Shown here in pieces: positions 17,682 through 55,826 of a stretch of 56,618 nt of DNA (positions within the stretch are counted from its first letter, which is position 1; every line of letters begins with the position of its first letter). The stretch is from IMG/VR virus record IMGVR_UViG_3300043353_000072, positions 1 to 56,618 of that record; one strand, given 5' to 3'. Origin of the DNA: a virus. Under the pieces are notes generated by a model that had not been told where the DNA came from, ran no database searches, and saw only the letters and a program-made list of their open reading frames with translations. Made by a program: the position numbers and the translations under genes.

Positions 17682-17700
17682 CGAAGGAAACTCCAACCGG

Positions 17701-17759
17701 CCCGGGCTGTATTGCCCGCGGCACGCCCTCTAATTAGGCCACCGTTGCCGCTCGGTCAA
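17701..17759 (-). promoter_or_regulatory. Repeated promoter-leader element P1
   Basis: On the minus strand: -35 TTGACC (17754-17759), 17-base spacer, -10 TAATTA (17731-17736), then the leader GCCGCGGGCAAT plus ACAGCCCGGG (17701-17722), which can fold CGGGC with GCCCG. The same arrangement recurs at P2, P3 and P4. Drives the operon 17681-14990. Confidence 0.75.
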
Positions 17760-17776
17760 TCCATTTCCTGCTACTA

Positions 17777-17808
17777 TTCCATCACTCCATCAATCCATCA
17801 TTCCATCA
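17777..17808. repeat. Four tandem 8-bp repeats (NTCCATCA) upstream of P1
   Basis: Four consecutive units, each ending TCCATCA, lie just upstream of the P1 -35 box. Tandem 7-8 bp direct repeats are typical binding sites of ribbon-helix-helix repressors, and an RHH protein is encoded at 23596. The included word CAATCCATCAT (17791-17801) recurs upstream of P3, P4 and the initiator gene. Confidence 0.6.
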
Positions 17809-17813
17809 AACTG

Positions 17814-18092
17814 TCATTCATCCCTGGCCCGGTTGAGGATGCGGGACTGCCGGATGTCGTGCGTCATGACCCAGTATTTCCAGCCGTCCCCGAGGCGCAG
17901 ATAGCGGTAGGTGGTCCGCCCGTATGGCGCGTCATCGCCCCGCTCCCGGATGGCGGTGAACAGGGCCGCGTAGACGTTCTCGTTGTGCGGACCGCGCACG
18001 ATGTAAAAGTGCGGGTTCTCCGGCATGGTCTTGGCGAACACCCAGTTGAGCGGCTCAACGGCCAGCCGCAGTTCCTCGTTGGTCATCGGCAT
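17814..18092 (-). CDS. Unknown protein (92 aa)
   Basis: ATG 18092 has GGAG seven bases upstream. It contains HFYIVRGPHNENVYAALFTA and TTYRYLRLGDGWKYWVMTHD, a small alpha/beta protein of a type found in plasmids and phages of proteobacteria. Last gene of the P2 operon. Function unknown. Confidence 0.7.
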   Translation of the reverse strand: MPMTNEELRLAVEPLNWVFAKTMPENPHFYIVRGPHNENVYAALFTAIRERGDDAPYGRTTYRYLRLGDGWKYWVMTHDIRQSRILNRARDE

Positions 18093-19372: not shown

Positions 19373-19433
19373 GCCCGGGCTGCATTGCCCGCGGCGCGGC
19401 TCAGTAATTAGGCCACCATTGCCGCATCGTCAA
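19373..19433 (-). promoter_or_regulatory. Repeated promoter-leader element P2
   Basis: Minus strand: -35 TTGACG (19428-19433), 17-base spacer, -10 TAATTA (19405-19410), then the conserved leader at 19373-19395. The spacer GCGGCAATGGTGGCC is nearly that of P1. It drives 19353-17814. Confidence 0.75.
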
Positions 19434-19442
19434 CGGGAAATG

Positions 19443-19482
19443 TGATGCCAACGTATGATTACATCAACATACGTTGGCATCA
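19443..19482. promoter_or_regulatory. 15-bp perfect inverted repeat upstream of P2
   Basis: 19443-19457 (TGATGCCAACGTATG) pairs perfectly with 19468-19482, with a 10-base loop. The right arm extends into ATACGTTGGCATCATGATG (19469-19487), a 19-base word found again exactly at 22942-22960, at the start of parA. It is a candidate operator or partition site. A second, shorter palindrome (GGCAT at 19476 with ATGCC at 19490) overlaps it. Confidence 0.7.
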
Positions 19483-19495
19483 TGATGTCATGCCG

Positions 19496-20449
19496 TCAGC
19501 CCACCTGATAGTGGCTCCGTTTGGCCAGGAAGTCGGCCCGCGCCTCCGGCAGCACGTTGACCAGGGTGTCGCGGATGAACGACCGGGCGCCGTCCGCGTA
19601 GTGGCGGAAATGACCGCGCCGGATATGCGGGACCGGGCTCGCGTGGTGCCCGTCCCCGGCGGCCTGCCGAGGCCCGCCGTGGCGCGCCCGCAGGGCCGTG
19701 ACGTACGGCCCGGAGTCGATGGTGGTGTAGGGCGGGATCGTCGGCTTGCCGGAGCGCCTCCGCGCCCGGTTCAGCTTGTCCGAGGCGGCTACCACGCGCC
19801 GGTCCAGCCCGTTGGTGTTCAGCAGCATGAGGGCCGCCATCAGCGGGTCCAGGACGTTGCCGGCGGCGGCGTTCTCCGGCGACCCGCCGTTGTTGATTAC
19901 CTCCATGCCGCGCTCGTAGCGCCAGGCCGAGGGCGCCACCGAACAGTTGTACTTCGCGTCGAACGGCATGCCCGGGTCCGGCCCGAACAGCAGCGCGCGG
20001 TCCCCGATGGTCAGCAGGCGCCGGCCGCCGATGCTGGCGGGTTGCAGTTCCACCACCTCGCAGTCATCGCCCACCGGATTGACCAGATAGGCGGCCGTCT
20101 CGTTGAGATCCTCGCCGGGCCGCAGGCCTCCCCAGGTGTGCACGAACAGCCAAGGGTCGCGGAACGGCTGCGGCAGGGCGCCGGCGTAGAACATCTTGGC
20201 GCCACGGTTGCCGCAGTCCATCAGCAGGTCGTTGTCCAGCCGGCCCAGGTCGAAGACGCGGCCCGCCTGGACCGCCTCCACGGCCATCTCACAGGTGACT
20301 TCGACCTCATGCTGGGTGGGCATGTGCTGCGGCGGTCCGGCCTCCGGGAAGGCCTGCGTCACCAGGAAGTCCAGCACCGCCTCGCGGATGCCCGGGACGG
20401 TGGCGTGCCACGGCAGGAAGTCATCGACGGGGTGAGCATAAGTGTTCAT
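19496..20449 (-). CDS. AcrVA2-like protein
   Basis: A 317-residue protein. The C-terminal region reads VPHIRRGHFRHY followed by an exposed strand ending RDTLVN, matching the PHIRRGHWxxY motif near the C-terminus of AcrVA2, the Cas12a anti-CRISPR that lowers Cas12a mRNA. AcrVA2-like proteins are widespread in phages and plasmids, and most have not been tested. The N-terminal domain (LPWHATVPGIREAVLDFL and after) is less clear. It is the last gene of the P3 operon. I chose ATG 20449 (overlaps previous stop). Confident about the motif, not about activity. Confidence 0.55.
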   Translation of the reverse strand: MNTYAHPVDDFLPWHATVPGIREAVLDFLVTQAFPEAGPPQHMPTQHEVEVTCEMAVEAVQAGRVFDLGRLDNDLLMDCGNRGAKMFYAGALPQPFRDPWLFVHTWGGLRPGEDLNETAAYLVNPVGDDCEVVELQPASIGGRRLLTIGDRALLFGPDPGMPFDAKYNCSVAPSAWRYERGMEVINNGGSPENAAAGNVLDPLMAALMLLNTNGLDRRVVAASDKLNRARRRSGKPTIPPYTTIDSGPYVTALRARHGGPRQAAGDGHHASPVPHIRRGHFRHYADGARSFIRDTLVNVLPEARADFLAKRSHYQVG

Positions 20450-20682
20450 GGCCGGCCTCCGTGACAGGTGCTGTAGGTGTTGCCGAACGGGTCGGTGCGC
20501 GAGGTGCACGAGGTGCGCGGACCGCCACGCTCCCCGAATGTCTCATGGGTATATCCCAGCGGATCGGTCCGCTCGGACCGGGCCAGGGACCGCTCGGGCG
20601 GCGCGCGGCGGACGGGCTCCGCCACGCAGGCGCCGGCCGCCAGCCCGAAGGCGGCGGCCAGCAGCGTGAGGCGCGGGCTCAC
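20446..20682 (-). CDS. Small lipoprotein (78 aa)
   Basis: GTG 20682 overlaps the upstream stop as GTGA. The signal (SPRLTLLAAAFGLAAGAC) ends in a lipobox with Cys about residue 19. The mature part holds two related units (RTDPLGYTHETFGERGG and RTDPFGNTYSTCHGG). Exported and lipid-anchored by sequence. A surface-exclusion or moron role is possible but unproven. Confidence 0.65.
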   Translation of the reverse strand: MSPRLTLLAAAFGLAAGACVAEPVRRAPPERSLARSERTDPLGYTHETFGERGGPRTSCTSRTDPFGNTYSTCHGGRP

Positions 20683-20975
20683 GGGCGCCCCGTCAGGGAC
20701 GGATGGCGCACGCAGCGGTCGACCAGGGCTTGCCACCGATAGCTGCCAATCGGGCAGCCGCGGGTTTCCAGTTCCCGCGCGATGATGCGGTAGGGCCGGC
20801 CGGCCAGGGCCTCGGCCCGACGCCGGGCCAGGCGCATGCGCTGGACCTCACCGCGCGACACCTGGGTATGGCACTCGCTCGGCGCGTGCCACGCATCGAC
20901 GTCCGCGTGAAGGTCTATCTCGACGGCCTCGCATTTCGCCAGGATGGTGGCCACCCGGCCCAGGTGGCGGATCAT
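20679..20975 (-). CDS. Unknown protein (98 aa)
   Basis: Begins with a hydrophobic helix (GRVATILAKCEAVEIDLHAD), then a basic helical part (RMRLARRRAEALAGRPYRII). It overlaps both neighbours by four bases. Possibly nucleic-acid binding from its basic charge. No family recognised. Confidence 0.65.
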   Translation of the reverse strand: MIRHLGRVATILAKCEAVEIDLHADVDAWHAPSECHTQVSRGEVQRMRLARRRAEALAGRPYRIIARELETRGCPIGSYRWQALVDRCVRHPSLTGRP

Positions 20976-21196
20976 CGGCCGGCCTCCGCCACGTGATACA
21001 GGTCGCCGTCCTGGCGCAACTGTCCGGCGCGCACGAGCCCGCCCATGATTTGCTGGTACTGGTGGAGGGTGCAGCCCTGGCCCATCAGGGCGGCGTAAAT
21101 CACGCCACCCGGCGCCCCGGTCGGGCCAGCGGCCCGGACCGAGTCAATGATGGCGGATGCGACCATGCGCAGCAGGCGGATTTGTTCCTGGGTCAT
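20972..21196 (-). CDS. Small winged-helix-like protein (74 aa)
   Basis: Pattern of helix (EQIRLLRMVASAIIDSVRAA), GAPGGVIYAALMGQG, helix (YQQIMGGLVRAGQLRQ), then a short wing (DGDLYHV), typical of small winged-helix DNA-binding proteins of phages. Possible regulator; target unknown. Confidence 0.65.
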   Translation of the reverse strand: MTQEQIRLLRMVASAIIDSVRAAGPTGAPGGVIYAALMGQGCTLHQYQQIMGGLVRAGQLRQDGDLYHVAEAGR

Positions 21197-21531
21197 CGGC
21201 CGCCTCCGGTCGTCACGCGAAGCTGGAAGGTGCCCACGGCGTTCTCCCCGGTCAGCCGGGTCCAGCCGCAGCGGTCGCAGTAGAAGGAGTCGCCGCCGTC
21301 GATGGCCACCACGTCCGACATGGACATGGAAGCGAAGCGGAAGCCCTCCGGATGGTCCACGTTGAAGACGCGGAACAGTTCTTCCAGGGCGGCCTCAGCC
21401 GGCATGTCCGGCAGGTCGTCGGCCCAGATCATTTCGTAACGGCTGTAGTCGACGTGGCCAATGGCATCCAGCGAACGGTAGTTGAATTCACGCTGGAACT
21501 CGTCGCGAAGGCGCAGGAAACGGTATCTCAT
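21193..21531 (-). CDS. YodL-domain-like protein, first gene of P3 operon (112 aa)
   Basis: The central region FNVDHPEGFRFASMSMSDVV resembles the YodL domain pattern (P-x-FRG-x-SLSVSDVV), followed by a cysteine pair (FYCDRCGW). ATG 21531 is 15 bases after the P3 leader. YodL-type domains are common in plasmid and phage DNA-processing proteins, with unclear function. Confidence 0.6.
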   Translation of the reverse strand: MRYRFLRLRDEFQREFNYRSLDAIGHVDYSRYEMIWADDLPDMPAEAALEELFRVFNVDHPEGFRFASMSMSDVVAIDGGDSFYCDRCGWTRLTGENAVGTFQLRVTTGGGR

Positions 21532-21546: not shown

Positions 21547-21605
21547 GCCCGGGCTGCATTGCCCGCGGCTGAACGTATTTAGGCCAAGGTTGCCGGTAGT
21601 GTCAA
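21547..21605 (-). promoter_or_regulatory. Repeated promoter-leader element P3
   Basis: Minus strand: -35 TTGACA (21600-21605), 18-base spacer, -10 TAAATA (21576-21581), then the conserved leader (21547-21569). The spacer ends CCGGCAACCTTGGCC, identical to P4. It drives 21531-19496. Confidence 0.75.
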
Positions 21606-21636
21606 TCCATCAATCCATCATGACAGCATGATGTCA
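21602..21636. promoter_or_regulatory. Repeat cluster upstream of P3
   Basis: Two direct TCAATCCA-type units run into CAATCCATCAT (21611-21621) and then TGACAGCATGATGTCA (21621-21636), an imperfect palindrome. The cluster overlaps the outer edge of the P3 -35 box, where a repressor would compete with RNA polymerase. Confidence 0.6.
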
Positions 21637-21650
21637 CGCGCGCCGGGCAC

Positions 21651-21678
21651 AAAAAAACGGCGCCCGCGAGAGCGCCGT
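21651..21678 (-). terminator. Intrinsic terminator of the P4 operon
   Basis: Read on the minus strand, a perfect 7-bp GC-rich stem (ACGGCGC with GCGCCGT, 8-base loop) is followed at once by a run of seven T. It lies 58 bases after the stop of the last P4-operon gene (21737) and ahead of the P3 control region, so each operon is insulated. Confidence 0.85.
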
Positions 21679-22818: not shown

Positions 22819-22879
22819 GCCCGGGCTTCATTGCCCGCGGCTGGATGTGTATTTAGGCCAAGGTTGCCGGTGAGTATAG
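22819..22879 (-). promoter_or_regulatory. Repeated promoter-leader element P4
   Basis: Minus strand: -10 TAAATA (22850-22855), spacer CCGGCAACCTTGGCC as in P3, and the conserved leader (22819-22841, one mismatch). The -35 is degenerate (CTATAC, 22874-22879), so this copy may be weak or need an activator. It drives 22808-21737. Confidence 0.65.
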
Positions 22880-22921
22880 ACCCAATCGTTACGCCTTGAG
22901 CGCATGCCCGGCATGTGATTG

Positions 22922-22960
22922 CAATCCATCATGACATGATGATACGTTGGCATCATGATG
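22922..22960. promoter_or_regulatory. Repeat cluster at the parA start
   Basis: Contains CAATCCATCAT (22922-22932), CATGACATGATG, and the 19-base word ATACGTTGGCATCATGATG (22942-22960) shared exactly with the P2 inverted repeat. It overlaps the parA start codon, so a protein bound here could autoregulate parA and also affect P4. It may double as a partition site. Confidence 0.65.
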
Positions 22961-23596
22961 CTAACCCTGGTCATGGCAAGTCAGAAAGGCGGCGTGGGCA
23001 AGACCATGCTCAGTTGCGCGCTCGCGGTGGAGGCGAGCCAGCGCGGGTTCTCGCGCGTGGCCCTGCTGGACCTGGACGAACAGAACGCCTCCACCCGCTG
23101 GGCCATGAAGCGCGAGGCCGCCGGCATGCCCGGCGTCACGATGGTGTCCGGCCGGCGGAGCGGCCACCTTCGCGCCACCGTCACGGGACTGGGCCGGGAC
23201 GGGTTCGACCTGCTGGTGATCGACACGCCGCCGGCGGTGTCCCGCGTGGCGGCCGACGCCATGGCGGTCGCGGACCTGGTGGTGGTCCCCGTCCAGCCGT
23301 CGCCCGATGACGTGGAAGCGGTGGGCGCGACCATCGAACTCGCGGAGCGGTCCGGCGCGCGGACGGTGTTCGTGCTGAACCGCGTCAAGCCCAGGGTCGC
23401 GCTGACCCGGGAGTCCATTATCGCCTTGTCCCAGGGCGGCCCGGTGTCCCCGGTTATGATCTGGGACCGGGTGGTGCACGCCGAGGCCCGCATAACCGGC
23501 CGGGTGGCCGGTGAGCTGCGCCCCGGTGGCAAGGCCGCCGAGGAAATGGCCGCTCTGTGGCTGTATTTGTCCGATCAGTTCAAAAGGAAACACTGA
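22955..23596 (+). CDS. parA: ParA-type partition ATPase
   Basis: A 213-residue short ParA without an N-terminal HTH. The deviant Walker A KGGVGKT lies at residues 11-17, with LLDLDEQNAST (A' region) and LLVIDTPP (Walker B). Small ParA proteins of this kind work with a ribbon-helix-helix centromere-binding partner, which follows immediately (TGATG overlap at 23594-23598). It moves and separates copies of a low-copy replicon, so it implies an episomal prophage. Repeats around the start codon may be operator and centromere. Confidence 0.9.
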   Translation: MMLTLVMASQKGGVGKTMLSCALAVEASQRGFSRVALLDLDEQNASTRWAMKREAAGMPGVTMVSGRRSGHLRATVTGLGRDGFDLLVIDTPPAVSRVAADAMAVADLVVVPVQPSPDDVEAVGATIELAERSGARTVFVLNRVKPRVALTRESIIALSQGGPVSPVMIWDRVVHAEARITGRVAGELRPGGKAAEEMAALWLYLSDQFKRKH

Positions 23597-23805
23597 TGCC
23601 CGAGGCCGCGCGTTTCAGCCCCGTGAATGATACCGCGACGGAACGCGCGGCCAGGGAACCGGATCGCGCGAAGCTGGTGGTGACCACCGTCCGCCTGCCG
23701 CGCGAACTCCACAAGTGGCTGGCCATCCACGCGGCGACCGAGAACACCTCCATCCAGCAGATCATGCTGGACCTGCTGGGCGAGTACCGGCGCGACCACT
23801 CATAG
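23596..23805 (+). CDS. Ribbon-helix-helix partition/operator-binding protein (69 aa)
   Basis: The disordered N-terminus (about 25 residues) is followed by LVVTTVRLPRELHKWLAIHA and TSIQQIMLDLLGEY, the strand and two helices of a CopG/ParG-like RHH fold. Gene order and overlap with parA make it the likely partition partner. RHH proteins bind short direct repeats, which are present upstream of P1, P3, P4 and parA. Whether it binds them is an inference. Confidence 0.8.
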   Translation: MPEAARFSPVNDTATERAAREPDRAKLVVTTVRLPRELHKWLAIHAATENTSIQQIMLDLLGEYRRDHS

Positions 23806-24275: not shown

Positions 24276-24550
24276 GGCGCGTTCACCAGTTCCACCGTGT
24301 AGGCGGTCAGCGGCCGGTTGGGCTGCCCGTCCGGCCGCAGCGCCCGTTTCAGGCTCTTGGTGCGCCAGAATTCCAGCGCCTCCACGACCGTGGGGAAAAG
24401 CGCCGCCTGGGTGATGTCGTCGGTGGTGGGAATCCAACTCCGGCCGTCATGGCCGGCCACGTCGAACTGACACAGGTAGCGGCCGGACTCCGGGACGAGG
24501 ACCGTGCCATCCGGCATCTGGGCGCCGACCACCTTGATGGCCACGGTCAC
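24272..24550 (-). CDS. Unknown protein (92 aa)
   Basis: GTG 24550 overlaps the upstream stop as GTGA. It contains GTVLVPESGRYLCQFDVAGH and an aromatic helix FPTVVEALEFWRTKS. Probably a small alpha/beta fold. No family recognised. Confidence 0.65.
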   Translation of the reverse strand: MTVAIKVVGAQMPDGTVLVPESGRYLCQFDVAGHDGRSWIPTTDDITQAALFPTVVEALEFWRTKSLKRALRPDGQPNRPLTAYTVELVNAP

Positions 24551-25236
24551 GCGACGGCCTCCACCAGCGCGGGCAGGTACAGGTCCGGCTCGGGCAGCAG
24601 CAGCCGCGCCACGCCCAGCAGCCGGTTTAGTTCCTTGACCGCCGCGGCGTCCTCCGCCTCCGCGATCATGCGTAGCTTCACGGCGCCGTTGGCGAACGCG
24701 TCGGCCGCCTCCCGGGGTGTCGCGCGCCGGCCCAGGGTCCACCACTGAACCGACCCGGTGGGCGCGTCGATTTCCAGCAGCGGCCCATTGTCCATCCGGA
24801 TGACGCGATAGTCCTCCGTTGGCCAGAGCAGCATGATCCCAGGGTTGCGGTCGTCGTGCATGCCCGCCGGGGGAATGATCTTGCCGCCGGGAACCTTGGC
24901 CTCGGGCACCCGACCCATGCGCGGATTGACGATGAACGGGCAGACCATGACGGCATAGGTGGCGCAGTCCAGGTGGCACGGCGGCTCGGACGTGATGCGG
25001 TTGATCGCGCACATCGGACCGATGCAGAACACCAGGGTGCGGCCCAGCGGCTCGCCGCAGACCCAGCAGCGACGGGACTGCCGGTAAACCGCGCGGCGCC
25101 ACTTTTGCGGATCGAACGCGGGGAACACGGGCTCCCCGTCCTTCCAGACCACGAACCAGGGGACAATCCAGCCGCGCTCGTCGCGTGGCAGCGCCGCCAT
25201 GTGCCGAGGGACAGGGGTGGACCTGCGATCACTCAT
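24547..25236 (-). CDS. Conserved zinc-binding unknown protein (229 aa)
   Basis: Starts with PRHMAALPRDERGWIVPWFV, then CWVCGEPLG, FCIGPMCAINRITSEPPCH and CATYAVMVCPF, a cysteine-rich metal site shared by a family often found in phages and plasmids. The second half (NPGIMLLWPTEDYRV and on) is strand-rich. The function of the family is unknown. First gene of a short leftward operon. Confidence 0.75.
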   Translation of the reverse strand: MSDRRSTPVPRHMAALPRDERGWIVPWFVVWKDGEPVFPAFDPQKWRRAVYRQSRRCWVCGEPLGRTLVFCIGPMCAINRITSEPPCHLDCATYAVMVCPFIVNPRMGRVPEAKVPGGKIIPPAGMHDDRNPGIMLLWPTEDYRVIRMDNGPLLEIDAPTGSVQWWTLGRRATPREAADAFANGAVKLRMIAEAEDAAAVKELNRLLGVARLLLPEPDLYLPALVEAVA

Positions 25237-25345: not shown

Positions 25346-25969
25346 TCAGGTCCGGGTGGCGGTCCTCCGGGCGGCCCAGGCCGCCAGCAGGCGCGCCTGG
25401 ATGCCGGCGTTCACGCGTTCCTGGGTGGCCTTGTCCGGCGTTTCCAGGCCCGCCGGAAGCCTGACTGCCAGGCTGGCCGAGGAACCGTTAAGGATAGGTT
25501 TTACTGGGAAAACAGGCTCGGGAACGGGTCCGGGGTTTTCCGCCGGCGTGCGCAGAACGTAGGCGTTGGAGGTCTGGCGGGCGCCGTGGGCGGTCCGGAC
25601 CATGCGACGTTGCCGGCCGAGCAGGCATAAACGCTCGAGCACGGGCAGCGCGCGGGCCACGGTGCGGGGATGGCAGCGGGCGCGGCGGGCAATGGACTCC
25701 ACTGACGGGTCCAGCCGGCCGTCCGGACCCAGGAAGTCGGGCAAGGCCTCCGCCACGTCCTGGTGGCAGGCGGACAGACTGCCGGCGGAGCGGTGGGCGC
25801 GGACAAGAAACAGGAAGCGGGCGCGTTGTTCCCGGGTGAGCGGCCGGCGGTCCCCGGGTCCATAGACGGAGTCCCGGCGCCAGCGGCGGCCGGGTCGTTG
25901 CGGGTGTTGGCATGTTTCCACGGTGCGAATCTCCGCGAAACCGGCCGCATTCGGGACGCGCGCCTCCAC
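25346..25969 (-). CDS. HTH protein, possible plasmid-type replication or control protein
   Basis: A 207-residue protein. Residues about 45-135 show helices and an HTH (LTREQRARFLFLVRAHRSAG, then SVESIARRARCHPRTVARAL, then LERLCLLGRQRRMV), as in helix-turn-helix Rep-like proteins of alphaproteobacterial plasmids. The C-terminal tail is less structured. The start is GTG 25969 with no strong ribosome site, so it may be shorter. Could be a second replication initiator for the plasmid state. Confidence 0.55.
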   Translation of the reverse strand: MEARVPNAAGFAEIRTVETCQHPQRPGRRWRRDSVYGPGDRRPLTREQRARFLFLVRAHRSAGSLSACHQDVAEALPDFLGPDGRLDPSVESIARRARCHPRTVARALPVLERLCLLGRQRRMVRTAHGARQTSNAYVLRTPAENPGPVPEPVFPVKPILNGSSASLAVRLPAGLETPDKATQERVNAGIQARLLAAWAARRTATRT

Positions 25970-26250: not shown

Positions 26251-26532
26251 GTGAAAATCACAGTCCATCCCACCGATCTGTTCTTCCATGCCGGCGACGA
26301 GGCGGTCCGCTTGTGGTCCGGCGTGGACGAGTCGGGCCAGCCGGTGCACGCGCTGATCGCCGTGGTCGTGACGCCCGACAGGCTGGCCCAGGCGCTCCGG
26401 CGCGTCCGGCCGCCCACGGCGCCCGAGTCGTACACCTGCCCACGCTGCGAATCTGTGAGCCACCATCCCGAGGACGTGAAACAGCGGTATTGTGCGCGGT
26501 GCCACCGATTCGAGGACGCCTGGGCGGTCTAG
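26251..26532 (+). CDS. Zinc-ribbon protein (93 aa)
   Basis: GTG 26251 follows GGAGG at good spacing. The N-terminal part is strand-rich (MKITVHPTDLFFHAGDEAVR). The C-terminus holds CPRCESVSHHPEDVKQRYCA and CH, a zinc ribbon. First gene of a short rightward unit with the ProQ-like gene. Confidence 0.7.
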   Translation: MKITVHPTDLFFHAGDEAVRLWSGVDESGQPVHALIAVVVTPDRLAQALRRVRPPTAPESYTCPRCESVSHHPEDVKQRYCARCHRFEDAWAV

Positions 26533-26573
26533 TTTTGTTCCCTGTGGCGGGGGACGATTCGAGGGAGGAAAGA

Positions 26574-27176
26574 ATGGGGACATTGAGTTTGCCCGGGCAT
26601 CTGGTCCGGGAAGCGTTGGCGGCGCACCCGAAGCTGGCGAAACCGGAACCGGAGCCAGAGCCAATACCGGAGCCCGCACCCGATCCCGAGCCAATACCGG
26701 AGCCAGCGCCGGAACCAGAGCCGGAGCCCCAGGCGGCGTCGGTCGTGCCGGCCCAGGTGCCGTTCCGGAATTCAAGGCAGAGGTTCCGGGCCAGGAAACG
26801 CGCGGAACGGGCAATCGCGAGGCGGCAGGCGTGGCGGGAGCGGGTGCACGAATTGTCGGACCTGGAAGCCACCTTGCGCGCCACCTGGCCCGAGGCCTTC
26901 ACGCGACCGGGGAAGCCGCTGGTGGTGGGCGTGCATCGGAAGATCGCGACGGAACTGGAATGCGACGTGGAATTACTGTCGTTGTTCCTCGGGCGGTGGG
27001 TACGCTCCCCCGGCTATATGGCCGCGACGGCGGCCGGGCATCCGCGGATCAACCTGGATGGCAGCGTCGTTGAGGCGGAATCATTGGCGATTCGCGGGGA
27101 CCTGCGGGCAGGCGATTTGCCGCTCGATGAGGCCCCGCAGGTGGCCCAGTTCCCGCTCGTTGAGGTCGAGTCGTAG
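26574..27176 (+). CDS. ProQ/FinO-family RNA chaperone
   Basis: A 200-residue protein. ATG 26574 follows GAGGGAGGAA. Residues about 20-48 are a Glu-Pro repeat linker (EPEPIPEPAPDPEP), with a 17-bp DNA word repeated at a 30-bp period. Residues about 92-190 match the FinO/ProQ domain: LRATWPEAFTRPGKPLVVGV, then LGRWVRSPGYMAATAAGHP and RINLDGSVV. Family knowledge: FinO and ProQ proteins bind stem-loop RNAs and often control plasmid conjugation or copy-number antisense RNA. This fits an episomal phage. The 3' end overlaps the opposing gene by 96 bases. Confidence 0.8.
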   Translation: MGTLSLPGHLVREALAAHPKLAKPEPEPEPIPEPAPDPEPIPEPAPEPEPEPQAASVVPAQVPFRNSRQRFRARKRAERAIARRQAWRERVHELSDLEATLRATWPEAFTRPGKPLVVGVHRKIATELECDVELLSLFLGRWVRSPGYMAATAAGHPRINLDGSVVEAESLAIRGDLRAGDLPLDEAPQVAQFPLVEVES

Positions 27177-54330: not shown

Positions 54331-54879
54331 TCACGGCAGGAACGTCTCGGACTGCCGCCCCACTGGCCGGCGCGGGTTTATCTCGGACCTGATGGGCCGG
54401 TGCTGCACCAGGGAGGGGACGTGTAGCCAGTAACGTTCGCGCCTGTCCCCCAAAAAGTCCGCCACCATGAGGTCGAAGCCCGTGGGGTGCTCCACCGCGC
54501 GACGCCAGCCTGGGCGGTAGGCGTGGATGGCGGGCGCGTGGCCGGCCGGCAGGTAGAAGCATTGCGTCATGATGAACGAGCGGCCCGGCATTTCCCTGGA
54601 ACCGAGCCGCGCGTCCGACCGCTTGATGCTGAAAAACTGGATGACCTGCCCTGGGTTTTTGTCGATTTCCGCTTCCACCTTGGCGGTGAAATCCCGCGTC
54701 AGGATGATGTCGTCCTCAAGGTGCACCGTGGGATCGTTCTGGCTGGCCGTCATGGCGTAAAGGAACGTGGTCATGGCGTCGCGCGAGAAGTCCCGCATGA
54801 TTTCCAGGCCGGGAATCCCCGCCGTGAGATCCGGCAGGAAATGCTCACGCTCTCGCACCACGCGCACCAGATACCGCAT
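54331..54879 (-). CDS. Glycosyltransferase-like protein
   Basis: A 182-residue protein. DPTVHLEDDIILTRDFTAKV (EDD at residues 55-57) resembles the DxD metal/nucleotide-sugar site of GT-A enzymes, with the strand before it. GFDLMVADFLGDRRERYW is a later motif like those of GT25-type enzymes, and VQHRPIRSEINPRRPVGRQS closes it. Short for a GT. ATG 54879 overlaps the ParB-like stop. Adjacent to ParB and PP-loop genes, so it may add sugar to DNA, RNA or protein. Confidence 0.65.
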   Translation of the reverse strand: MRYLVRVVREREHFLPDLTAGIPGLEIMRDFSRDAMTTFLYAMTASQNDPTVHLEDDIILTRDFTAKVEAEIDKNPGQVIQFFSIKRSDARLGSREMPGRSFIMTQCFYLPAGHAPAIHAYRPGWRRAVEHPTGFDLMVADFLGDRRERYWLHVPSLVQHRPIRSEINPRRPVGRQSETFLP

Positions 54880-55826
54880 CAGGCCGCCTCCGCCGTCTCC
54901 CGCTGGCAGATGGACAGCAGCCGTTCCGCCGGCCGATCCCCCAGCACCCGCTTGACGATTTCCGCTTCGCTGTCCGCGAACATGAGATTGATCCGGTAGA
55001 ACACGCGGTCCTTCCGTACCAGCTCACGTTCCTCGTCAGTGCGCGCGGCGGCCAGCTTTTGCTCGTGCTCCCGTTGCGCCTCCAAGGCTTGCATCGACAT
55101 GGCGGACGTTATGACGATGCTCCCGTTGTTCACGTCCGAGGCCACCACGGAGGCGCGGCCGTCCTGGTCGCTCCGCGCCTCCGGATTCCAGGCGGCGGTG
55201 TACTCGTCGCCGGCGAGCGCGTCCGGTGCCGGAATGTCCGCCAGCAGCTTCTCAATCTCGGCCTCACTGAGCATGAGACTGTCGGCGGCCCAGTCCAGGG
55301 CTCCGAGTTTCTCAAGGTCCCGCAGCACCTCGGCCGACAACTGGATGTCTTCCGATCCGCGCGCCCGGTTATGCCGCAGCGTGGCGATGCGCATTTGTTC
55401 CGCCGTCATGTCCACCAGCACCACGGGCAACGTCTCCATGCCCAGGGCCGCCGCGGCGCGCCAACGGTGCTCGCCATCGACAATGCGGTGTCCGTCCCGC
55501 TGCACGATGACCGGCTGGGTGAAACCGTCCTCCCGCATGGAGCGCAGCAGCAACTCGAAATCCTTCTCGCTCATGCGGTTGGGATTGTACTCGTTGGGGT
55601 GGATGTCGCTGACCGGCAGGTATTCGATATTGAGCCGTTCCAGCATGATGTTGGTCTTGATGGGCGGCGCGCGTTTGCGTCCCGCCATTCGTTGCGGTCG
55701 CGGTGGATCTGCTGATGGTGGAGCGTGCGCGCCATTGGTTTTCGCGGCGGCCTTGCGCGCCGGTGCCTTGGCTGGTGGTGGTGGTGGGCTCGCCGCTTTT
55801 TTGGCGGCCGTTTGCTTGCGAGGCAT
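54879..55826 (-). CDS. ParB-domain protein, IbrB-like (second ParB-like)
   Basis: A 315-residue protein. The first about 55 residues are an Ala/Lys/Pro basic tail. Residues about 65-200 are a ParB/Srx domain: LNIEYLPVSDIHPNEYNPNR, then HRIVDGEHRWRAAAALGMET (GEHR box) and TLRHNRARGSEDIQLSAEVL. The C-terminus is helical (LEAQREHEQKLAAARTDEER). IbrB-like proteins lie next to PAPS-reductase-like IbrA proteins, as here (gap 9 bases). It may act in gene control or DNA modification. Confidence 0.85.
   Translation of the reverse strand: MPRKQTAAKKAASPPPPPAKAPARKAAAKTNGAHAPPSADPPRPQRMAGRKRAPPIKTNIMLERLNIEYLPVSDIHPNEYNPNRMSEKDFELLLRSMREDGFTQPVIVQRDGHRIVDGEHRWRAAAALGMETLPVVLVDMTAEQMRIATLRHNRARGSEDIQLSAEVLRDLEKLGALDWAADSLMLSEAEIEKLLADIPAPDALAGDEYTAAWNPEARSDQDGRASVVASDVNNGSIVITSAMSMQALEAQREHEQKLAAARTDEERELVRKDRVFYRINLMFADSEAEIVKRVLGDRPAERLLSICQRETAEAA

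What the first reader, a model, noticed from the sequence alone, without database searches (positions are those of the whole stretch)
19496..20449. AcrVA2-like protein in a P-element operon
The C-terminal VPHIRRGHFRHY region matches the hallmark of AcrVA2. Distant homologues are common in mobile elements and largely untested. Position in an operon of tiny accessory genes suits counter-defence, and other genes in the operon deserve testing for inhibitor activity.
Basis: partly seen in the sequence, partly recalled or inferred. Interest (0 to 1): 0.7.

Follow-up and report, generated by a model that had tools for sequence, protein, structure and literature searches.

The report
Distant cousin of anti-CRISPR AcrVA2
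A temperate phage with plasmid-like genes carries, in a tight operon of small genes, a protein built like the CRISPR inhibitor AcrVA2 but from a separate, widespread and apparently untested branch of that family, in a kind of bacterium that seems to lack AcrVA2's known target.

Summary
The ORF is real (317 aa, minus strand 19496-20449) and carries VPHIRRGHFRHY at residues 273-284. It is related to AcrVA2: PHROG hit to the AcrVA2 family (E 0.0055), profile-profile scores of 68-109 against at most 21 in 60 shuffles, and an AlphaFold2 model whose two best PDB matches of 996 chains are the AcrVA2 structures (Z 7.4/7.1; next 4.0); a model of a distant relative repeats this. It is not AcrVA2 proper. 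On a 135-row tree it lies in a sister clade separated at 100/100. Motif position +7 is Arg in 59/59 of its clade, His in 83/85 AcrVA2-type proteins. Cas12a was found in 0/249 genomes of the inferred host family and 0/49 genomes with relatives; the same search does find Cas12a elsewhere. The gene ends a five-gene operon with 4-nt overlaps, behind one of four copies of a repeated promoter-like 'P element', on a phage-plasmid. Most likely it is an AcrVA2-fold inhibitor with another target; co-translational mRNA loss is inference, anti-Cas12a activity unlikely.

The parts
19496..20449 (-). AcrVA2-fold protein of the R-type sister clade, 317 aa
19598..19651 (-). codons of the conserved core GHHASPVPHIRRGHFRHY (residues 267-284); invariant H275, R277, H280, R282 in the aligned relatives
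   Evidence: position computed from the ORF
20446..20682 (-). 78-aa gene, lipoprotein-like start (LLAAAFGLAAGAC, read by eye); overlaps the gene above and below by 4 nt
   Evidence: no PHROG
20679..20975 (-). 98-aa gene of the operon, no family
20972..21196 (-). 74-aa gene of the operon, no family
21193..21531 (-). first gene of the operon, 112 aa, YodL-like (PF14191)
   Evidence: E 1.9e-14
21547..21597 (-). P element of this operon: promoter-like stretch (TTGACA upstream, CTAAAT) and leader hairpin GCCGCGGGCAATGCAGCCCGGGC
   Evidence: promoter hexamers read by eye, the consensus scan did not list them
21657..21678 (-). terminator-like hairpin with T-run that separates this operon from the one upstream
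19443..19482 (.). palindrome TGATGCCAACGTATG..CATACGTTGGCATCA between the end of this operon and the next P element; likely operator
   Evidence: function inferred
19373..19426 (-). P element of the next operon
22819..22871 (-). P element of the operon before this one
17700..17752 (-). fourth P element

Best explanation
The gene encodes a full-length AcrVA2-fold protein from a separate sister clade ('R-type') carried by phages and plasmids. Shown here: homology, clade and operon. Inferred: it is made together with other small accessory genes from a shared promoter module as a counter-defence or host-takeover factor. Its divergent N-terminal and middle part would bind a peptide of some host protein other than Cas12a, probably while that protein is being made, and the conserved C-terminal HxRRGHxR domain would do what it does in AcrVA2, leading to loss of that protein's mRNA. 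My step-wise estimates: AcrVA2-fold relative 0.93; outside the AcrVA2 clade 0.9; counter-defence or host-takeover role 0.6; co-translational mRNA loss as in AcrVA2 0.4; target not Cas12a 0.85.
For: PHROG hit to AcrVA2. hhalign prob 93.5-98.4%, real scores 95.1 and 68.6 against maxima of 20.5 and 20.8 in 60 shuffles. Reciprocal HMM detection with decoys far below. Two AlphaFold2 models rank 7CI2 and 7CI1 first and second with a gap of 2.5 Z or more to the next entry. Seven of 86 AcrVA2-type proteins carry the G-x-HASPR-x-H-x-RR lead-in of the window's clade. Separate clade at 100/100. No Cas12a in 0/249 and 0/49 genomes, with a working control. N-terminal part far more divergent than the C-terminal part. 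AcrVA2 mechanism from PMC13131331 and PMC12908700 (passages).
Against: No experiment. Sequence similarity outside the C-terminal domain is not detectable (prob 0.1-5.5%), and masking about 20 core residues drops the close-set comparison to 1-12%. Both Z values are below 8 and Foldseek alone is not significant. Whether the peptide-binding pocket is kept could not be mapped. A conserved C-terminal part with a divergent N-terminal part is common and does not prove target switching. No anti-defence neighbour was identified with confidence.
Confidence: 0.4

Rival explanations
1. It has the AcrVA2 fold but another job: a phage or plasmid regulator or peptide-binding protein, for example one acting on the element's own proteins, with no mRNA decay and no counter-defence role.
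For: Present in many unrelated phages and plasmids; R instead of H at the diagnostic position; nothing in the operon is a recognised anti-defence gene.
Against: Sporadic presence (7 of 249 genomes of one family) in small-ORF accessory regions fits counter-defence better than a core function.
Confidence: 0.4
2. It is a genuine AcrVA2 that inhibits Cas12a.
For: Motif, C-terminal homology and fold.
Against: Outside the AcrVA2 clade, H-to-R and W-to-F changes in the core, no Cas12a in the sampled host family or carriers.
Confidence: 0.06
3. Only a small C-terminal motif is shared, by convergence or as a common mobile domain; the rest of the protein is unrelated to AcrVA2.
For: Most of the sequence signal is in about 20 residues (masking test); N-terminal half gives prob 0.1-5.5%.
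Against: Both models put AcrVA2 first, the second over the N-terminal and middle part without the motif; with the core masked the broad profile still aligns the preceding helix in register (prob 72-77%); bridging sequences exist.
Confidence: 0.07

Closest known systems
AcrVA2 of Moraxella phages (PDB 7CI1/7CI2; phrog_6160), inhibitor of Cas12a
   Same: Fold by structure comparison; C-terminal domain with HxRRGH core; carried by mobile elements in accessory regions
   Different: Sister clade; R for H at +7, F for W at +6, no W at +10; no Cas12a found in the inferred host family; no detectable sequence similarity in the N-terminal half
AcrVA2-type proteins of other phages (Shewanella Y11, Leptospira, Pasteurella, Erwinia, Lactobacillus JCL1032)
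   Same: Same domain and core; some share the HASPR lead-in
   Different: HWH core and W..G following it; other side of the 100/100 branch
Unnamed R-type proteins on plasmids and phages (Pseudomonas aeruginosa plasmid p1, Burkholderia vietnamiensis G4 plasmid, Paraburkholderia pBN4, Pseudomonas phage Noxifer; L008-L021)
   Same: SPxxHxRRGHxR core and KLNxxR..GK element; those placed on the tree lie in P0001's clade (the G4 plasmid copy was seen only as a tblastn hit)
   Different: 17-52% identity to P0001 among the rows; annotated as hypothetical proteins where annotated

Membership tests
AcrVA2 superfamily (AcrVA2 fold) | C-terminal domain with HxRR[GA]H core, recognised by profile | tested here: met
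   phrog_6160 E 0.0055; hhalign prob 93.5-98.4% with shuffles far below; HMM E 1.6e-4
AcrVA2 superfamily (AcrVA2 fold) | Overall fold of 7CI1/7CI2 | tested here: met
   First and second of 996 chains, Z 7.4/7.1, rmsd 6.4/6.0, 203/197 residues; next 4.0; repeated with a distant relative. Z below 8, so taken together with the sequence evidence
AcrVA2 proper (anti-Cas12a) | Core HWH (His at +7, Trp at +6) | tested here: not met
   P0001 has F at +6 and R at +7; 83 of 85 AcrVA2-type proteins have H at +7, 59 of 59 window-type have R
AcrVA2 proper (anti-Cas12a) | Falls within the AcrVA2 clade | tested here: not met
   Separate side of a 100/100 branch
AcrVA2 proper (anti-Cas12a) | Cas12a-peptide binding pocket of the middle domain | not testable with these tools
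   No residue-level structural map was available
AcrVA2 proper (anti-Cas12a) | Cas12a present in hosts | tested here: inconclusive
   0 of 249 genomes of the inferred host family, 0 of 49 genomes with relatives, control rings; the host of this contig is unknown
AcrVA2 proper (anti-Cas12a) | Inhibits Cas12a by translation-dependent loss of its mRNA | not testable with these tools
   needs an assay

The most novel reading that the evidence does not exclude
The R-type clade (240 confirmed IMG/VR stretches in one pattern scan, 82 in prokaryote genomes) is a large, unrecognised set of mobile-element proteins that silence individual host genes during translation: a fast-changing peptide-reading part chooses the target and a constant HxRRxHx(R/H) C-terminal domain is the shared effector or docking part. 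AcrVA2 would then be one specialised branch of a general nascent-chain-guided mRNA-decay system aimed at many defence genes.
Probability: 0.22. Interest if true: 0.85.

Novelty: new variant of a known kind. Interest (0 to 1): 0.52.

Why it matters
AcrVA2 is described as the first prokaryotic example of destroying an mRNA by reading its nascent peptide, and its decay machinery is unknown (PMC13131331, passages). A large sister clade with the same fold, a core differing at one diagnostic residue, and carriers without Cas12a offers a direct way to look for other targets and to learn which residues carry the activity. It also warns against annotating such genes as anti-Cas12a on the motif alone.

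Tried and rejected
Pfam, NCBIfam and PADLOC gave no hit for P0001. phmmer against PDB gave one weak arsenate reductase hit (E 0.0094), and the 6-row profile one hit at E 1.2; I treat both as chance. The first viral scan with P0001 alone confirmed no relative. Foldseek against PDB gave no hit at E <= 0.001; against BFVD it gave 11, among them Pseudomonas phage Noxifer. Results against the AcrVA2 reading: the masked-core and N-terminal-half profile tests. No single locus among the 80 + 77 held both motif types in the regular-expression scan, but contig IMGVR_UViG_3300049574_000230 gave one locus of each type (L039, L204). Considered and rejected: (a) an artefact of the antisense ORF 19442-20464, because relatives align in the minus frame; (b) a conjugative plasmid, because terminase, portal, capsid, sheath and baseplate genes are present. 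Rows dropped before counts: of 80 viral loci 76 had proteins of 220-400 aa and 52 remained after removing rows over 75% identical; Brigit and L256 lack the motif by my expression; the tree uses 59 window-type rows and 76 of 86 AcrVA2-type rows (L254 and L256 left out, identical or short segments removed).

The mechanism preprint on AcrVA2 (doi 10.1101/2022.11.29.518452) is not in the library; I know it only as cited in PMC13131331. Whether it already describes these relatives I could not see. Paper searches: 'AcrVA2' (17 papers hold it, 16 listed; passages of six read), and the combinations (listings only).

Full report
Observation. The window is an IMG/VR record of 56,618 bases. The reported ORF is real: 317 aa on the minus strand, 19496-20449, with VPHIRRGHFRHY at residues 273-284. 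It is the last of five genes that overlap by 4 nt each (21193-21531, 20972-21196, 20679-20975, 20446-20682, 19496-20449; coordinates, the start of the fourth read by eye). The first gene is YodL-like (PF14191, E 1.9e-14). Genes two to four have no PHROG match; genes two and three have none in Pfam, gene four was not scanned with Pfam. The operon lies behind one of four copies of a repeated element (core at 17700, 19373, 21547, 22819; 0 expected in 100 shuffles). In minus orientation the element has an invariant CGGCAA..TGGCCTAA.T stretch and a leader hairpin, and a terminator-like hairpin precedes the copy of this operon (21657-21678).

What carries it. I scanned 32 window proteins other than P0001 with Pfam out of 75 ORFs picked, a rough pick. 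Terminase, portal, S49 protease, capsid E, tail sheath, DNA-circularisation, GpP-like and baseplate J proteins identify a contractile-tailed phage. ParA (22955-23596), a weak HicB/ribbon-helix-helix match (23557-23805), a weak HTH_36 match (25346-25969) and a ParB_N protein (54879-55826) suggest a phage-plasmid. No integrase was seen among the scanned proteins, which does not exclude one. The terminase is closest to Rhodobacter phages (56%) and ParA to plasmids of Acetobacteraceae (Lichenicola, Roseomonas; 45-47%). The host is therefore probably an alphaproteobacterium, perhaps of Acetobacteraceae; this is inference.

Relation to AcrVA2. P0001 has no Pfam, NCBIfam or PADLOC match. PHROGs gives phrog_6160 (E 0.0055, residues 266-291 on profile positions 277-302 of 322) and one weaker family (E 0.056). 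phrog_6160 is AcrVA2: the annotated AcrVA2 of Shewanella phage Y11 matches it at 1e-58 and matches PDB 7CI1 'AcrVA2' at 1.5e-72. Relatives of P0001 were found in 10 plasmid records, in 240 IMG/VR stretches (80 kept) and in 82 stretches of prokaryote genomes (80 kept). A 13-row profile with P0001 against nine AcrVA2-type phage proteins gives prob 93.5-95.7%, a 58-row profile 97-98%, aligned over residues about 191-307. Real scores of 95.1 and 68.6 compare with maxima of 20.5 and 20.8 in 60 column shuffles. An HMM of the nine AcrVA2-type proteins finds P0001 at E 1.6e-4 in 2,613 sequences; the best made decoy is at 6.7. A larger AcrVA2 set of 79 gives prob 97.3-98.4%.

Limits of the sequence signal. 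Most of it lies in about 20 residues. With that core masked in both profiles the broad profile keeps prob 72-77% for the preceding helix, the close profile 1-12%. The N-terminal half alone gives 0.1-5.5%.

Fold. AlphaFold2 with a 40-row alignment gives a confident model (pLDDT 85.2, pTM 0.85). Foldseek alone has no PDB hit at E <= 0.001. VIA-align over 996 chains puts 7CI2 (Z 7.4, rmsd 6.4, 203 residues, model 19-299) and 7CI1 (Z 7.1, rmsd 6.0, 197 residues) first and second; the third entry is HAT1 at Z 4.0. Z values under 8 alone would not be decisive. A second model, of the distant relative L023 (pLDDT 80.9, pTM 0.73), again puts 7CI2 (Z 6.9, rmsd 4.4, 176 residues) and 7CI1 (Z 6.1) first and second, next 3.6, over model residues 1-232, so without the motif. 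Two models agreeing with the sequence evidence make a shared fold very likely.

Not AcrVA2 proper. A scan with six AcrVA2-type proteins gave 77 IMG/VR loci. Of 86 AcrVA2-type proteins 85 have the motif, and position +7 is His in 83; of 60 window-type proteins 59 have it, and position +7 is Arg in 59. The search patterns fixed parts of H-x-R-R-x-H but not position +7. Seven of 86 AcrVA2-type proteins have the G-x-HASPR-x-H-x-RR lead-in typical of the window's clade, linking the two. On a tree of the C-terminal segment (135 rows) the two types are two sides of one branch at 100/100; P0001 pairs with L008 (100/87), then L010 and L009 (the bootstrap had not fully settled).

Target. The Cas12a model TIGR04330 rings in 0 of 49 genomes that carry relatives (50 of 80 loci given, one not held) and in 0 of 249 genomes drawn from the family of Roseomonas sp. 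CECT 9278. The same search finds a 1,274-aa match at 1,298 bits in one of 293 genomes drawn from the order of a Pseudomonas genome, so it works. A profile of the window's clade matches 7 of those 249 genomes. The relatives in genomes are mostly far from P0001 (matches chiefly to its C-terminal part), so this is evidence about the clade rather than about this phage's own host.

How it probably works. PMC13131331 (passages) reports that AcrVA2 recognises the nascent N-terminus (LSKT) of Cas12a and triggers loss of its mRNA, that a crystal structure shows it bound to another Cas12a peptide, and that the decay machinery is unknown. PMC12908700 (passages) reports that AcrVA2 can be aimed at tagged Cas9 and Cas12f. 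In the window's clade the N-terminal part is much more divergent than the C-terminal part (26% against 45% mean pairwise identity in the close set, 16% against 35% in the broad set; 22% against 29% in nine AcrVA2-type proteins). I read this as changing recognition on a constant core. Shown: homology, clade, operon, no Cas12a in the sampled genomes. Inferred: counter-defence role, peptide recognition, mRNA loss, identity of the target.

Print. PMC7162821 (passage) notes huge-phage proteins that cluster with AcrVA2; PMC10846135 (passages) describes the Y11 protein; PMC7913775 and PMC7556299 were read as passages. In the passages read I saw no description of the R-type clade; the mechanism preprint was not available, so I make no claim that the clade is unpublished.

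Noticed in passing
window 17700-17752, 19373-19426, 21547-21597, 22819-22871 (-): Four copies of a promoter-like module with an invariant leader hairpin drive separate small-gene operons; absent from all fetched loci other than the window's own. It looks like a co-regulated accessory regulon whose other genes could be tested for inhibitor activity.
   Followed up: partly
window 19443-19482 and 22916-22960; repeats near 17766-17824 and 21602-21636: Palindrome around ACGTTGGCATCATGATG near two P elements (one beside the parA start) and tandem GATGGATTGATGG repeats near two others: possible operators.
   Followed up: no
window 24547-25236 (-); L008 8879-9424; L013 3642-4196: A cysteine-rich 229-aa protein whose relatives lie next to or near the AcrVA2-fold gene in L008 and L013 (38% and 35% identity); no Pfam or PHROG match.
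   Followed up: partly
IMGVR_UViG_3300049574_000230 (L204 and L039): One 19.8-kb contig yields both an AcrVA2-type (L204) and an R-type (L039) gene, which suggests that the two types are not redundant.
   Followed up: no
L235, about 5586 (+) and 3756 (-) in the frames: Two AcrVA2-type HLRRAHWH motifs on opposite strands within one phage locus.
   Followed up: no
window 26313-27176 (+): ProQ/FinO-family protein on the phage-plasmid (PF04352, E 7e-10).
   Followed up: no
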